The position numbers and the translations under genes were made by a program. The notes beneath the pieces were generated by a model that ran no database searches, was not told the origin of the DNA, and saw nothing but the letters and a program-made list of their open reading frames with translations. A DNA stretch of 7,543 nucleotides from an uncultured Acidobacteriota bacterium (GTDB lineage Bacteria; Acidobacteriota; JAAYUB01). Below are positions 3,441-7,543 of the stretch, one piece after another; position 1 is the stretch's first letter, and every line of letters starts with the position of its first letter. The DNA is taken from the NCBI GenBank assembly GCA_937925645.1, contig CALAMB010000322.1, positions 1-7,543 of the forward strand, given 5' to 3'.

Positions 3441-4445
3441 TCAGGCGGCCTTTCGGGATATCAACAGGTTGGAACGGCCTGACTGCGAATCCAGCTCCTG
3501 TCTCGCGACCAACTCCATGCCGTTATATTTCAACAGGCACATCAGGTCGTCTTCCGGGATCTCGAAAGACTGAGGGAAGACCTGATCGGCAGACTGTTCC
3601 GGCTTCTCGGGCACCGACAGCACCAGCCGCCCACCCGGTTTCAAGTAGTCGGCCAGTTCGCCCACGGCCGGGAGCAGCTCCGCCTGGGGCAGCTCCTGAA
3701 GGACGTTGGCGCAGACCACCCCGTCGAATCGTTCCTTGACCGCTTTCTGCAGACCCGGCAACCGGCCCACCGCCAAACGTCCCTTCAGGTCGGGATATCG
3801 TTGGGTGGCTTGAGCGATCATCGCCGGAACGGCATCCACCCCCTGCACGCGGTAGCCGAGACGCTTCAGCAGAGCCGCGTTCTGCCCCCCGCCGCAGCCC
3901 ACGTCAAGGATGGCCGAGTCGCGATTGGGAAACGCATTGACGAACACATCCTCCGGCAACCGGCACGCTTCCATCTGCCGGATTTGCTCCGGCGACAGGT
4001 GGGAATAGAACTGCGCCACCGGATCCAGCAGCGGCTCGATCTCCGGCAGCGACCGGCCCGGGGCGAGGCGGCCGGCGATCTCGTCGAAGGCGGCGCGCAC
4101 GTGGCGCAGCAGGATGGCGTCGGCGCCGGGGACGCGGACGACGAGGCCGGCCACGGCGCCGGCGGCCTGGAGCGCCGGGGCGGCCAGGCGCAGGCCGTCG
4201 AGCTCCAGCACCGCCTGCCGGTCTCCCAGGGCGCGTTGGGTGAGCCGGGCGATCCGGTTCAGCACCTCCCGGCTGGGGCGCAGGTCGCCCCGCTCCAGCT
4301 TGGACAGGTGCGCCTGCTTCAGGCCGAGCGCGGCGGCGAACGCCACCTGGGTGGGGAACTCCGAACCGAGCCGCGCCGCGCGGATCCACTCGCCCAGGGT
4401 CTGACCGTTAGGAATATTTCCGACTATTTCATTCCGTTTGGCCAT
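3441..4445 (-). CDS. XRE-type HTH protein fused to SAM-dependent methyltransferase
   Basis: This 334-aa protein is the first gene of the leftward operon. Residues about 16-70 form an XRE/Cro-type helix-turn-helix (QVAFAAALGLKQAHLSKLER at 33-52 spans the recognition region). Residues 71-175 are a linker rich in Ala, Leu and Pro. Residues about 178-332 are a class I (Rossmann-fold) methyltransferase: motif I ILDVGCGGG (179-187), the acidic end of strand 2 at GVD (D204), FDGVVCANVLQEL (240-252), and LKPGGRLVLSVPE (268-280). The methyl acceptor is unknown, and no DNA-methylase catalytic motif (DPPY or PCQ type) is seen. This argues against a restriction-modification enzyme and fits small-molecule methylation or SAM sensing. 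GGAGG stands 4 nt before the start. The first 15 codons are AT-richer, the middle is extremely GC-rich and the methyltransferase part is moderate, suggesting a mosaic origin. It is the obvious candidate to control the divergent operon and itself. Confidence 0.9.
   Translation of the reverse strand: MAKRNEIVGNIPNGQTLGEWIRAARLGSEFPTQVAFAAALGLKQAHLSKLERGDLRPSREVLNRIARLTQRALGDRQAVLELDGLRLAAPALQAAGAVAGLVVRVPGADAILLRHVRAAFDEIAGRLAPGRSLPEIEPLLDPVAQFYSHLSPEQIRQMEACRLPEDVFVNAFPNRDSAILDVGCGGGQNAALLKRLGYRVQGVDAVPAMIAQATQRYPDLKGRLAVGRLPGLQKAVKERFDGVVCANVLQELPQAELLPAVGELADYLKPGGRLVLSVPEKPEQSADQVFPQSFEIPEDDLMCLLKYNGMELVARQELDSQSGRSNLLISRKAA
4411..4421. promoter_or_regulatory. GGAATATTTCC motif inside the HTH gene start
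   Basis: An 11-bp near-palindrome lies about 25-35 bp inside the coding sequence of the HTH-methyltransferase gene. It matches the GGAATATTCC core found beside the divergent promoter. It may be a downstream operator for autoregulation. It overlaps codons for Gly, Asn and Ile, so chance is possible. Confidence 0.35.
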
Positions 4446-4470
4446 CGATCCTCCAGTCCAGCATTGATAT

Positions 4471-4502
4471 CGAATTACTTTTAATACTTTTATTTCAGTT
4501 TT
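4471..4502 (-). promoter_or_regulatory. Weak candidate promoter of the HTH-methyltransferase operon
   Basis: On the minus strand, TTCACT and TATTAA stand 18 nt apart in an AT-rich segment upstream of the gene starting at 4445. Each matches the sigma70 consensus at only 4 of 6 positions. The operon needs a promoter in this region, but this particular pair is a weak call. Confidence 0.25.
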
Positions 4503-4561
4503 TTAGTGAATTGCTTTCGCTTTCATCCTATCAATTCATTCAGCACCCTGTCAATCAAATC

Positions 4562-4569
4562 AATATTCC
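4562..4569. promoter_or_regulatory. AATATTCC half-site
   Basis: An isolated copy of the 8-bp core shared by the sites at 4604-4624 and 4742-4759, placed about midway in the divergent control region. It is a possible auxiliary operator. Confidence 0.3.
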
Positions 4570-5828: not shown

Positions 5829-5830
5829 AA

Positions 5831-6994
5831 ATGACAAACGAATCCCGTTTCTTCACGTCCGAATCGGTGACCGAGGGACACCCCGACAAGGCCGCCGACC
5901 AGATCGCCGACGCCGTGCTCGACGCGGTGCTGGCCCAGGACCCCGCCGGCCGCGTGGCCTGCGAGGTGCTGCTCACGCCCGGCCGGGTCACGGTGGCCGG
6001 CGAGATCACCACCCGCGCGGAGATCGACATCCCGATGATCGCGCGGGGCGTCCTCCTCGACATCGGCTACGACAGCGCCGAAGCCGGACTGGATGGGCGG
6101 ACCTGCGAGGTGGACTGCCGGGTGCAGCGGCAGTCGCCCGAGATCGCCGCGGCGGTCCGCGACGGCGGCGCCGGCGACCAGGGGCTCATGGTGGGCTACG
6201 CCTGCCGCGAGACCGCGGCGCTCATGCCGCTCCCCATCGCCCTGGCCCACGCGCTGGCCCGGCGCCTGGCGGCGGTGCGCCGCGACGGCACGCTCGCGTA
6301 CCTCGGCCCCGACGGCAAGACCCAGGTGACGGTGGAGTACCGCGGCGGGCGCCCCGTCCGCGTGGCCGCGGTGGTGGTGAGCGCCCAGCACGCGCCGGGC
6401 GTCGCGCCGAAGCGGCTCGAGGCCGACATCCGCGAGCGGGTGATCGCGGCGGCCATCCCCCCGGAGCTCCTCGACGGGCGGACGATTTACCACGTCAACC
6501 CGGGCGGCCCCTTCACCACGGGCGGGCCGGCGGCCGACTGCGGCCTCACCGGGCGCAAGCTGATGGTGGACACCTACGGCGGCGCCGCCCGCCACGGCGG
6601 CGGCGCCTTCTCGGGGAAGGACCCCACCAAGGTGGACCGCTCCGCCGCCTACATGGCCCGGCACATCGCCAAGACCGTCGTGGCGGCGGGGCTGGCGGAG
6701 CGGGCCGAGGTGCAGCTGGCGTACGCCATCGGCGTGGCCGAGCCGGTGAGCGTGCGGGTGGACACGTTCGGCACCGCCCGGGTGGAAGAGCGCCGGCTGG
6801 AGGAGGCGGTGCGCGGGCACTTCCCCCTGCGGCCGCGGGAGATCATCCGGCACCTGCGCCTGGACCGGCCCGTCTACCGGGCCACCGCCGCCTACGGCCA
6901 CTTCGGCCGCGAGGGGGACGGCTTCACCTGGGAGCGCACCGAGGGCGCCGCGGCGCTCGCGGCCGCCACCGACGGCGGCGGGAGGGCGCGATGA
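5831..6994 (+). CDS. metK: S-adenosylmethionine synthetase (methionine adenosyltransferase)
   Basis: MetK makes S-adenosylmethionine from methionine and ATP in the cytoplasm, releasing phosphate and pyrophosphate. The 387-aa protein is full length (E. coli has 384). Catalytic and metal residues are all present by position: H17 and D19 in the GHPDK motif (16-20), signature GAGDQGLMVGYA (113-124) with D116, K163, D236, R242 and K243 in GLTGRK, and signature GGGAFSGKD (256-264) with K263, K267 and D269. It ends with the usual AAYGHFGR. Two oddities stand out. The segment before GAGDQG is about five residues shorter than in E. coli. The NPTGRF motif reads NPGGPF (223-228), changing the Arg next to the adenine-stacking Phe to Pro. 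The start at 5831 was chosen because AAAGGAG (5816-5822) lies 8 nt upstream; the ATG at 5825 is only 2 nt away. It overlaps the next gene by 4 nt. Sitting among unknown small genes, it may be an accessory copy. Confidence 0.96.
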   Translation: MTNESRFFTSESVTEGHPDKAADQIADAVLDAVLAQDPAGRVACEVLLTPGRVTVAGEITTRAEIDIPMIARGVLLDIGYDSAEAGLDGRTCEVDCRVQRQSPEIAAAVRDGGAGDQGLMVGYACRETAALMPLPIALAHALARRLAAVRRDGTLAYLGPDGKTQVTVEYRGGRPVRVAAVVVSAQHAPGVAPKRLEADIRERVIAAAIPPELLDGRTIYHVNPGGPFTTGGPAADCGLTGRKLMVDTYGGAARHGGGAFSGKDPTKVDRSAAYMARHIAKTVVAAGLAERAEVQLAYAIGVAEPVSVRVDTFGTARVEERRLEEAVRGHFPLRPREIIRHLRLDRPVYRATAAYGHFGREGDGFTWERTEGAAALAAATDGGGRAR

Positions 6995-7410
6995 ACACCG
7001 CCGTCATCATCACCGTCGCCGCGCTGCTGGCCACCAAGTGGCTGGACTGCCGGACCACGCTCCGCCGGGTCGGCTCGCCGGACGGCGAGACCAACCCCCT
7101 GGCGCGCACCGCCATGGCCCGCTGGGGGATGCGCCGGGCGACCTGGGGCGTGTTCGCCCTGGCCGCCCTGATCACGGGGACCGCCGCGGCGGCGGCGCTC
7201 GGGTCCCCGTCGCCCTGGGCCCGCCCCGCCTTCACGGCCCTGGGGCTCGCCATCGCCGCGGTCCAGGGGGCGGTGGCCCGCCACAACGCCACGGGCCGGA
7301 GCAACGCCGTCACCCGCGCCGTGCTCCGCGCCCACTGCGCCTGGCTCCGCGGGCGGACCGACCACGACCGACGCAATCGACAATTCAAAAGGAGGTCCCA
7401 TGAGCGATAA
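6991..7410 (+). CDS. Small polytopic membrane protein of unknown function
   Basis: This 139-aa protein overlaps metK by ATGA (6991-6994), implying translational coupling. A GGGAGGG site lies about 6 nt upstream. It has about three membrane segments: 3-18 (ending in KWLDCRTT, 16-23), about 50-70 and about 79-97. A conserved-looking ETNPLAR (33-39) lies in the first loop. The basic tail (about 98-139, with HDRRNRQFKRRSHER) is probably cytoplasmic. The LDxxTT...NPLAR pattern resembles DUF5658-like small membrane proteins. I hold that from memory only and it is not a firm assignment. No transport or enzymatic motif is visible. It is followed by a gene overlapping it by 11 nt, so the metK-membrane protein-next gene order is a tight operon. 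Confidence 0.8.
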   Translation: MNTAVIITVAALLATKWLDCRTTLRRVGSPDGETNPLARTAMARWGMRRATWGVFALAALITGTAAAAALGSPSPWARPAFTALGLAIAAVQGAVARHNATGRSNAVTRAVLRAHCAWLRGRTDHDRRNRQFKRRSHER

Positions 7411-7543
7411 ACCCAACCACCAATTTTTCCGCGACTGCCTGCGGCCCGCGCGCCCCGACGGGGACGCCCACTGGGCCGACTTCCTGGAGCGGCTGGCGGC
7501 GCTGGGGCGCGACCCGCGGCTCCTCTGGTACCCGAGCAGCGGG
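7400..7543 (+). CDS. Unknown protein, N-terminal 48 residues (runs off window)
   Basis: AAAAGGAGGT (7387-7396) precedes the ATG at 7400, and the frame stays open to the window end, so the 3' part is missing. The visible residues are MSDKPNHQFFRDCLRPARPD, then a helical stretch WADFLERLAALGRDPRLL, ending in WYPSSG (43-48). The WYPSSG end looks like the start of a conserved motif in unnamed proteins, but I cannot name the family. It overlaps the membrane-protein gene by 11 nt and belongs to the same operon as metK. Confidence 0.8.
   Translation, partial: MSDKPNHQFFRDCLRPARPDGDAHWADFLERLAALGRDPRLLWYPSSG

What the first reader, a model, noticed from the sequence alone, without database searches (positions are those of the whole stretch)
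3441..7543. Divergent SAM-centred locus: SAM synthetase facing an HTH-methyltransferase fusion
A complete metK lies in an operon of small unknown proteins, directly divergent from a gene that fuses a DNA-binding HTH to a SAM-binding methyltransferase domain. A SAM-responsive regulator controlling a dedicated SAM source would be an unusual arrangement, and an accessory metK could serve methylation, defence against SAM-depleting phage enzymes, or a modification pathway. The motifs are seen directly. The link between the arms is inferred from gene order and shared operator-like sites.
Basis: partly seen in the sequence, partly recalled or inferred. Interest (0 to 1): 0.72.

Follow-up and report, generated by a model that had tools for sequence, protein, structure and literature searches.

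The report
Defence-like cassette with spare SAM synthetase
A few Acidobacteriota carry, besides another SAM synthetase gene, a second and faster-changing one in a gene cluster that shares parts with suspected phage-defence systems and likely works as one, in which the added enzyme would keep the cell supplied with SAM and a nearby DNA-binding protein fused to a methyltransferase is predicted to be the switch.

Summary
In detail: an intact metK lies in an operon diverging from a gene that fuses an XRE-type HTH to a class I methyltransferase, with six GGAATATT sites and three sigma-70-like promoters between. metK is the third ORF of its arm.

This metK is accessory: both relatives found (G072, G034) hold a second, separate metK. 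G072 repeats the whole order. There the operon runs on into DUF7663 and a tandem AAA+ ATPase; the other arm continues, in the window too, into an ADP-ribosylglycohydrolase. Window and G072 have different left flanks; the genes change fast; the G072 contig also carries type III CRISPR and a pAgo-like gene. Homologous AAA genes on plasmids have a WYL regulator nearby (9 of 10 annotated cases) and twice an ADP-ribosylglycohydrolase, so the HTH-methyltransferase seems to hold the WYL sensor's slot.

Best reading: an inducible phage-conflict cassette whose regulator likely senses SAM or a methyl acceptor, with MetK restoring SAM. Sensing, repression and defence are inferred. The order is very rare (regulator in 1 of 396 Acidobacteriota genomes) and none of the annotated plasmid loci has metK. 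New variant of a known kind.

The parts
2312..3415 (-). ADP-ribosylglycohydrolase (ARG/DraG-like), 367 aa, downstream of the regulator on the same strand
   Evidence: PF03747 E 3.8e-58; GDALG, DDT, GNGA, HND, DNDT stretches present (motif choice recalled); similarity of window to G072 stops at 2327, inside its last codons
3441..4445 (-). HTH-methyltransferase fusion, 334 aa: XRE-type HTH (32-70), conserved middle (76-125), class I methyltransferase (about 171-334); predicted one-component regulator
   Evidence: function as regulator inferred
4446..4866 (.). AT-rich divergent intergenic region (41.8% GC against 71.3% for 2312-7543)
   Evidence: alignment with G072
4411..4418 (+). GGAATATT site 1, inside the start of the HTH-methyltransferase gene
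4562..4569 (-). GGAATATT site 2, upstream of the minus-strand -35 at 4554
4605..4612 (+). GGAATATT site 3
4614..4623 (+). GGAATATTCC, sites 4 and 5 (overlapping, one on each strand), just upstream of the plus-strand -35
4742..4749 (-). GGAATATT site 6, upstream of the minus-strand -35 at 4739
4626..4654 (+). promoter-like TTGACA-17-TAGAAT for the metK arm
   Evidence: both boxes identical in G072
4525..4554 (-). promoter-like TTGACA-18-TAGGAT for the regulator arm
4711..4739 (-). second minus-strand promoter-like site TTGACA-17-GATAAT
4867..5340 (+). 157-aa protein, no known family; first gene of the metK arm
   Evidence: no Pfam, NCBIfam or PADLOC match and one PHROGs match at E 0.45 only; dN/dS 0.30 against G072
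5523..5828 (+). 101-aa ORF, coding status uncertain (possible remnant)
   Evidence: one PHROGs match at E 0.2 only; dN/dS 0.76 with 5 synonymous and 10 other changes
5831..6994 (+). accessory S-adenosylmethionine synthetase (metK), 387 aa
6991..7410 (+). 139-aa protein of unknown family (looks membrane-bound by eye), start overlaps the metK stop by 4 bases
7400..7543 (+). N-terminal 48 residues of a protein whose full G072 homologue is DUF7663 (PF24699); cut by the window end

Best explanation
This is a gene cluster that adds a second SAM synthetase gene, distinct from the other metK of the relatives that carry it, to an ADP-ribosylglycohydrolase and an HTH-methyltransferase protein, and it likely works as an inducible phage-conflict cassette in which that HTH-methyltransferase is predicted to hold the operon down until its methyltransferase domain loses SAM or meets its methyl acceptor, whereupon the new MetK would restore SAM. 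Shown by sequence: intact metK, ADP-ribosylglycohydrolase and HTH-methyltransferase in the window; continuation into DUF7663 and a tandem AAA+ ATPase in G072 and G034; a second metK in both; clustered GGAATATT sites at the promoters; a left flank that differs between window and G072; raised dN/dS; a G072 contig rich in defence genes; homologous AAA genes near WYL regulators. Inferred: that the HTH-methyltransferase binds GGAATATT, that it represses rather than activates, that SAM, SAH or a methyl acceptor is the signal, that AAA plus DUF7663 is the acting part, that the cluster moves between strains, and that the enemy is a phage (for instance one that depletes SAM or blocks MetK, as T3 SAMase does in E. 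coli, PMC8406200).
For: Accessory metK: two of 396 Acidobacteriota genomes have it (93% and 96% identity; the next-ranked genome has 67%) and both also have a 61-62% copy; its clade (10 of 100 rows) is separate with support 100/95. Cassette: window 2924-7543 is 95.6% identical to G072 and 2327-2923 96.5%; similarity ends at 2327 and the left flanks differ; between G072 and G034 four cassette genes have dS 0.025-0.060 against 0.089-0.145 for four other genes. Raised dN/dS: accessory metK 0.37-0.56 in three comparisons (G072-G034: 18 synonymous, 18 other changes) against 0.08 for the other metK in one (23 and 6). Defence setting: the same 65.8-kb G072 contig carries Cas10, type III-D RAMP genes, Cas1, Cas2, PrimPol, a pAgo-like gene, a CRISPR array with at least 34 repeats, Vsr, HNH, SbcCD-like genes (by eye) and a second DUF7663 beside a large ATPase gene. 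Slot argument: of 18 plasmid records with an AAA homologue (1 of 18 covering at least 80% of it), 12 were opened and 10 are annotated; 9 of 10 have a WYL regulator in the stretch shown, 8 of 10 next to or one gene from the AAA gene, 4 of these divergent; 2 of 10 have an ADP-ribosylglycohydrolase; 0 WYL among 66 features in 80 kb elsewhere on two of these plasmids. The Desulfosarcina one is 40% identical over nearly the full length. Published theme: ADP-ribosylglycohydrolase-centred conflict systems with swappable one-component sensors (PMC9503650 section 3.8, whole section read). Operator.
Against: No metK in any of the 10 annotated plasmid neighbourhoods, so MetK is not part of the wider theme. 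The HTH-methyltransferase was found in 1 of 396 Acidobacteriota genomes and the full gene order only in a near-identical cassette. Upstream of metK G034 differs, so the regulator arm may not be fixed. GGAATATT lies just upstream of the -35 boxes, a place as fitting for an activator as for a repressor. Raised dN/dS runs through the cassette (AAA 0.50, 139-aa ORF 0.38-1.56 on few changes), so relaxed constraint would explain it as well as an arms race. The metK rows of this clade (window, G072, G034, P0060) have a letter make-up that the tree models do not assume. Ligand, DNA binding and defence are untested; the DUF7663 model was too poor to use (pLDDT 46.6). PADLOC gave no hit for MetK, the ADP-ribosylglycohydrolase, the small proteins or DUF7663. 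The defence island is that of G072; the genes seen in the window's own left flank (1-2311) show none. In the deepest relatives P0003 and P0004 the regulator's C-terminal 54 residues keep only 15-19% identity, so a conserved methylation substrate is not evident.
Confidence: 0.38

Rival explanations
1. Metabolic or modification cassette: the added MetK supplies SAM for a dedicated methylation, and the HTH-methyltransferase is a bifunctional enzyme and regulator of the ArsRM type that methylates a small molecule and controls its own genes; no phage is involved.
For: The methyltransferase domain is closest to small-molecule class I methyltransferases in fold search and in NCBIfam (best CpaM, DVU1556-type, UbiG, all below cut-off). 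ArsRM is a published HTH-methyltransferase fusion that binds its own promoter (PMC10190100, abstract).
Against: No biosynthetic or resistance family was found among the eight cassette proteins scanned; the partners are an ADP-ribosylglycohydrolase, DUF7663 and a tandem AAA ATPase whose plasmid relatives mostly sit near WYL regulators, several near nucleases.
Confidence: 0.22
2. Passenger metK: a SAM synthetase gene was carried into a mobile AAA/DUF7663 cassette by chance and gives only gene dosage; the divergent HTH-methyltransferase is an ordinary autoregulator without a SAM link.
For: metK is missing from all 10 annotated plasmid AAA loci; its 5' end and upstream arm look exchangeable; narrow distribution; raised dN/dS could be relaxed constraint.
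Against: metK, the 139-aa ORF, DUF7663 and the AAA gene are coupled by overlapping starts and stops, are colinear in G072 and G034, and the metK stretches held to be catalytic are kept; a clade with members at about 75% identity exists.
Confidence: 0.2
3. Phage or plasmid auxiliary metK: the stretch is part of a phage or plasmid that boosts host SAM.
For: phrog_1569, a phage-protein family, matches at 1.4e-126 and 151 stretches of viral contigs encode a metK relative.
Against: In a tree with 10 of the 80 viral loci kept, the accessory clade is not with viral metK; viral contigs gave no HTH-methyltransferase and no DUF7663 relative; the family scans of the window's genes and of the two genes that follow in G072 name no phage structural or replication family.
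Confidence: 0.08
4. SAM supply for SAM-AMP signalling by the type III CRISPR system on the same G072 contig.
For: SAM-AMP is a known type III messenger made from SAM and ATP (PMC10600005, passages); Cas10 lies on the same contig.
Against: Cas10 is about 34 kb away; no CorA effector was named among the eight L213 proteins scanned (not every gene there was scanned); the largest CorA group in that paper's passages is type III-B, while the genes here match type III-D models; the window shows no CRISPR genes.
Confidence: 0.04

Closest known systems
ADP-ribosylglycohydrolase-centred conflict systems (PMC9503650, section 3.8)
   Same: ADP-ribosylglycohydrolase next to a one-component HTH regulator with a fused sensor-like domain; fast evolution; variable add-on genes; swapped sensor domains
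   Different: Sensor would be a methyltransferase domain, not Nudix or WYL; no phosphatase seen; carries MetK, DUF7663 and a tandem AAA ATPase
Tandem-AAA loci with WYL regulators on plasmids (Desulfosarcina sp. BuS5, Leisingera thetidis, Fuscovulum blasticum and others)
   Same: Homologous AAA ATPase, regulator divergent in 4 of 10 annotated cases; two of ten also have an ADP-ribosylglycohydrolase
   Different: No metK, no HTH-methyltransferase annotated; partners include PD-(D/E)XK, PLD-like, HEPN, RtcB or Sir2 genes
CapW and BrxR, WYL repressors of defence operons (PMC9122588, abstract)
   Same: Would play the same role: a repressor at the operon promoter, released by a ligand
   Different: No WYL domain; XRE-type HTH fused to a methyltransferase
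ArsRM, ArsR-methyltransferase fusion (PMC10190100, abstract)
   Same: HTH fused to a SAM-dependent methyltransferase; ArsRM binds its own promoter
   Different: ArsR-type HTH and arsenic substrate; no MetK partner in the abstract
T3 SAMase and its inhibition of E. coli MetK (PMC8406200, abstract)
   Same: Shows that a phage can attack both SAM and the SAM synthetase, the threat that a second MetK would answer
   Different: It is the attack, not the defence; no accessory MetK is described in the abstract read
Other MetK of Acidobacteriota
   Same: Same enzyme family, mostly 60-67% identity among the best-ranked matches
   Different: Separate clade, higher dN/dS, different gene context

Membership tests
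S-adenosylmethionine synthetase (TIGR01034) | Score above the curated cut-off and three domains | tested here: met
   521 bits against 309.4; PF00438, PF02772, PF02773
S-adenosylmethionine synthetase (TIGR01034) | Makes SAM | not testable with these tools
   expected stretches present; no assay
ADP-ribosylglycohydrolase-centred conflict system | ADP-ribosylglycohydrolase without a coupled ADP-ribosyltransferase or sirtuin | tested here: met
   PF03747 found; no transferase or sirtuin family among the eight cassette proteins scanned, three of which have no known family
ADP-ribosylglycohydrolase-centred conflict system | One-component regulator with Nudix or WYL sensor | tested here: not met
   HTH plus methyltransferase; no Nudix or WYL match up to E 1. 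The paper says over 42% of systems have such a regulator, so it is common rather than obligatory
ADP-ribosylglycohydrolase-centred conflict system | Coupled phosphatase (a little over 55% of published cases) | tested here: not met
   none among the eight cassette proteins
ADP-ribosylglycohydrolase-centred conflict system | Peptide-binding chaperone | tested here: inconclusive
   tandem AAA+ ATPase could act so; not one of the published chaperone types
WYL-regulated tandem-AAA locus | Homologous tandem AAA ATPase | tested here: met
   40% over 726 aligned positions to the Desulfosarcina protein; seen in G072 and G034, beyond the window's end
WYL-regulated tandem-AAA locus | WYL regulator beside it | tested here: not met
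   the place is taken by the HTH-methyltransferase
CapW/BrxR family | WYL domain | tested here: not met
ArsRM-type fusion | ArsR-family HTH fused to arsenite methyltransferase | tested here: not met
   HTH is HTH_3/HTH_31; ArsM models match far below cut-off
Phage auxiliary metK | Phage gene context or phage clade | tested here: not met
   window context only 7.5 kb
Known PADLOC defence system | Match of the cassette proteins to a defence model | tested here: inconclusive
   none for ADP-ribosylglycohydrolase, MetK, small proteins, DUF7663; generic methyltransferase, HTH and AAA matches only (mad2, HTH_VI, IetA and others)

The most novel reading that the evidence does not exclude
A SAM-guarding immune cassette: a transcription factor whose own methyltransferase domain reads the cell's SAM level stands opposite a fast-evolving, phage-resistant SAM synthetase; when a phage destroys SAM or jams the usual MetK, the switch lets go, the spare MetK refills SAM and the AAA/DUF7663 effector is armed.
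Probability: 0.2. Interest if true: 0.82.

Novelty: new variant of a known kind. Interest (0 to 1): 0.56.

Why it matters
Phage T3 destroys SAM and traps the host SAM synthetase in filaments (PMC8406200, abstract). Whether bacteria keep a dedicated answer to that attack seems open: in the listings of my ten paper searches no title or abstract start describes an accessory MetK used for defence; the full texts were mostly not read. This cassette gives a concrete candidate with a testable switch and enzyme. It also suggests that a methyltransferase fold can take the place of the WYL sensor, widening the list of signals that may arm such loci.

Tried and rejected
SAM riboswitch in the leader: not found; no Rfam match at gathering score in the whole window and one chance-level match in 4440-5850. 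Phage origin: (in one search, 55 phage records match DNA of this stretch, the eight listed all within metK). Known defence family. Plasmid homologues of the HTH-methyltransferase: 76 records, the top-ranked at 32.6% identity, the eight listed all starting at residue 116 or later, none covering 80%; its middle region alone gave none. The HTH plus middle fused to other sensors elsewhere: only G072 among 396 genomes, at most 10 candidates scored in each, and among the 6 of its class. The 157-aa protein: only G072 among those 6. Fold of DUF7663: model too poor, not searched. Fold of the regulator: mean pLDDT 65, middle mostly below 50; fold hits shown are ordinary methyltransferases. In one search, 236 of 396 genomes matched A1 at 1e-8; every listed match except the full-length G072 one begins at model position 117 or later, but the list is cut and at most 5 candidates per genome were scored.

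Rows dropped: in the plasmid AAA count, 6 of 18 records were not opened and 2 of the 12 opened (H18, H27) carry no annotation there; flanks shown were 9 kb (H17), 6 kb (H19, H22) and 4.5 kb (the rest); in H19 the WYL gene is about 4 kb from the AAA gene with several genes between. The metK tree used 10 of 80 viral loci and 31 of 120 listed homologues. Accessory metK dN/dS was computed on three pairs, the other metK on a single pair.

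
Full report
What is there. The window encodes, from left to right, a 412-aa protein without a known family (210-1448, -), an ADP-ribosylglycohydrolase (2312-3415, -), the HTH-methyltransferase (3441-4445, -), then on the plus strand a 157-aa protein, a doubtful 101-aa ORF, metK (5831-6994), a 139-aa ORF and the start of another gene. The ADP-ribosylglycohydrolase starts 25 bases after the regulator's stop, so the two may share a transcript. metK overlaps the 139-aa ORF by 4 bases, and that ORF overlaps the next by 11.

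The divergent region. Six GGAATATT sites lie within 4411-4749 and none elsewhere in the window. Shuffling the AT-rich stretch itself gives a mean of 0.04 and never more than 2 in 5000 trials; some 8-mer reaches six copies in 1 of 1000 shuffles. A TTGACA-17-TAGAAT box faces metK and two TTGACA boxes face the regulator; each has a GGAATATT 2 to 7 bases upstream of its -35. In G072 the plus-strand boxes are unchanged and 4 of the 6 sites remain exact. The sites are real as sequence; that the HTH-methyltransferase binds them is inferred from place.

The relatives. No genome is held for the window. Through an Acidobacteriota locus I searched 396 genomes of that phylum. The full HTH-methyltransferase is in one, G072. 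metK above 68% identity is in two, G072 (93%) and G034 (96%); each also has a copy at 61-62%, which I call housekeeping from its place in the tree and its low dN/dS. In G072 that copy lies between genes for a protein-isoaspartate methyltransferase-like and a serine hydroxymethyltransferase-like protein on one side and an aminotransferase-like one on the other (labels read from the sequence by eye). Window and G072 share the stretch from 2327 to the window end at 95.6-96.5% identity; to the left of it the window matched the compared G072 stretch (36001-65803 of its contig) only in two short simple-repeat pieces. In G072 the operon goes on into a 293-aa DUF7663 protein and a 741-aa tandem AAA ATPase. 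The 4722-base G034 contig is colinear with it from metK to the AAA gene (97.8%) but has another metK start, from MRRREQTDSF on the same as in P0061 and P0062; the contig ends just upstream, so what precedes metK there is unknown.

Tempo. Accessory metK dN/dS is 0.56 (window-G072), 0.46 (window-G034) and 0.37 (G072-G034); the other metK between G072 and G034 is 0.08. The AAA gene is at 0.50 and DUF7663 at 0.26 between those genomes, three neighbours of the other metK at 0.03-0.15. Cassette dS (0.025-0.060, four genes) is below that of the four other genes (0.089-0.145), which suggests recent exchange. The accessory clade (window, G072, G034, P0059-P0063) is its own branch, support 100/95, apart from the other copies of the same genomes and from the ten viral sequences included; several of its rows deviate in letter make-up, which the models do not allow for.

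The regulator. Against the four close homologues found, the HTH part keeps 74-99% identity, the 50-residue middle 86-96%, the methyltransferase core 55-95% and the last 54 residues 15-96%. GC falls from 0.74 in the first 135 codons to 0.63 in the rest. A conserved DNA-binding half joined to a changing sensor half is what sensor replacement would leave. The structure model is fair for HTH and methyltransferase, poor between.

Neighbourhood evidence. On the 65.8-kb G072 contig lie Cas10, type III-D RAMP proteins, Cas1, Cas2, PrimPol, a CRISPR array of at least 34 repeats, a pAgo-like protein, Vsr, HNH, SbcCD-like genes (by eye), and a second DUF7663 next to a 1857-aa ATPase. DUF7663 occurs in 3 of 396 genomes; in the third, G336, it follows a tandem AAA gene (32% identical over 544 aligned positions to that of G072) with a divergent gene that looks sigma-factor-like by eye. 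On plasmids, 18 records hold an AAA homologue, one of them over at least 80% of the query. I opened 12; 10 are annotated; 9 show a WYL regulator (all but H24), next to or one gene from the AAA gene in 8 (not H19), divergent in H17, H20, H22 and H25; H26 and H28 show AAA, WYL and ADP-ribosylglycohydrolase in a row with a nuclease gene after; H23 has brxD in the same stretch, with Sir2 and a phosphatase. Two 40-kb control stretches on two of these plasmids hold no WYL gene among 66 features. No metK is annotated in any of the ten.

Reading. ADP-ribosylglycohydrolase-centred systems with exchangeable one-component sensors have been predicted to counter phage ADP-ribosylation (PMC9503650, section 3.8 read in full; a computational prediction). 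The present cassette shares the glycohydrolase, the regulator slot, the fast evolution and, in G072, the defence setting, and shares the AAA partner with the plasmid loci; but its sensor is a methyltransferase fold and it brings a SAM synthetase. The simplest common thread is SAM: the regulator can be expected to bind it, MetK to make it. Phage T3 both degrades SAM and inactivates MetK (PMC8406200, abstract), so a diverged MetK that is switched on when SAM falls would be a sensible answer. That last step is a proposal. It competes with a methylation or modification cassette and with a passenger metK.

Limits. The wider gene order behind the 53-88% homologues is unseen. Statements on G072 and G034 depend on correct binning if these are metagenome bins; two separate genomes carrying the cassette plus another metK make simple contamination less likely. 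DUF7663, the 157-aa and the 139-aa proteins have no known function. Literature statements rest on the open-access library searched; no paper there names DUF7663.

Noticed in passing
L213 13435-15606 and on (G072 C6): CRISPR array with at least 34 copies of a 36-base repeat at a period of about 72 bases, next to Cas1, Cas2, a CRISPR-associated primase-polymerase and type III-D genes including Cas10; a pAgo-like PIWI gene follows at 17745-19328.
   Followed up: partly
window 5483-5830: A ribosome-binding-site-like stretch and ATG at 5483 open a 503-aa frame in register with metK, overlapping the 101-aa ORF in another frame; the 101-aa ORF shows weak constraint (dN/dS 0.76) and may be a remnant. 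Its FTTFGFFSVVQK stretch recalls a widespread small protein (from memory, no call).
   Followed up: partly
window 2213-2275; L188 7585-7720: Simple tandem repeats (GGGACCT units in the window; other short units in G072) lie right at the left end of the cassette in the window and at its right end in G072 and could be where it recombines.
   Followed up: no
L187 625-6198 and 6346-7119 (-): A second DUF7663 gene beside a 1857-aa ATPase gene in the same G072 contig, suggesting that DUF7663 pairs with more than one kind of ATPase.
   Followed up: partly
L212 8275-12052 (G336): DUF7663 and tandem AAA with a divergent gene that looks like a sigma factor by eye: perhaps a third kind of regulator in the same slot.
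   Followed up: partly
window 4071-4220: The middle region of the HTH-methyltransferase (residues 76-125) is more conserved than its HTH in the two most distant homologues (86-94% against 74-78%), and matched nothing on plasmids; perhaps a partner-binding domain.
   Followed up: partly
L217 and L228 (Methylomonas koyamae plasmid): AAA homologue followed by RtcB on a plasmid that also carries a BREX gene (brxL), another sign that this AAA family travels with defence and RNA-repair genes.
   Followed up: no
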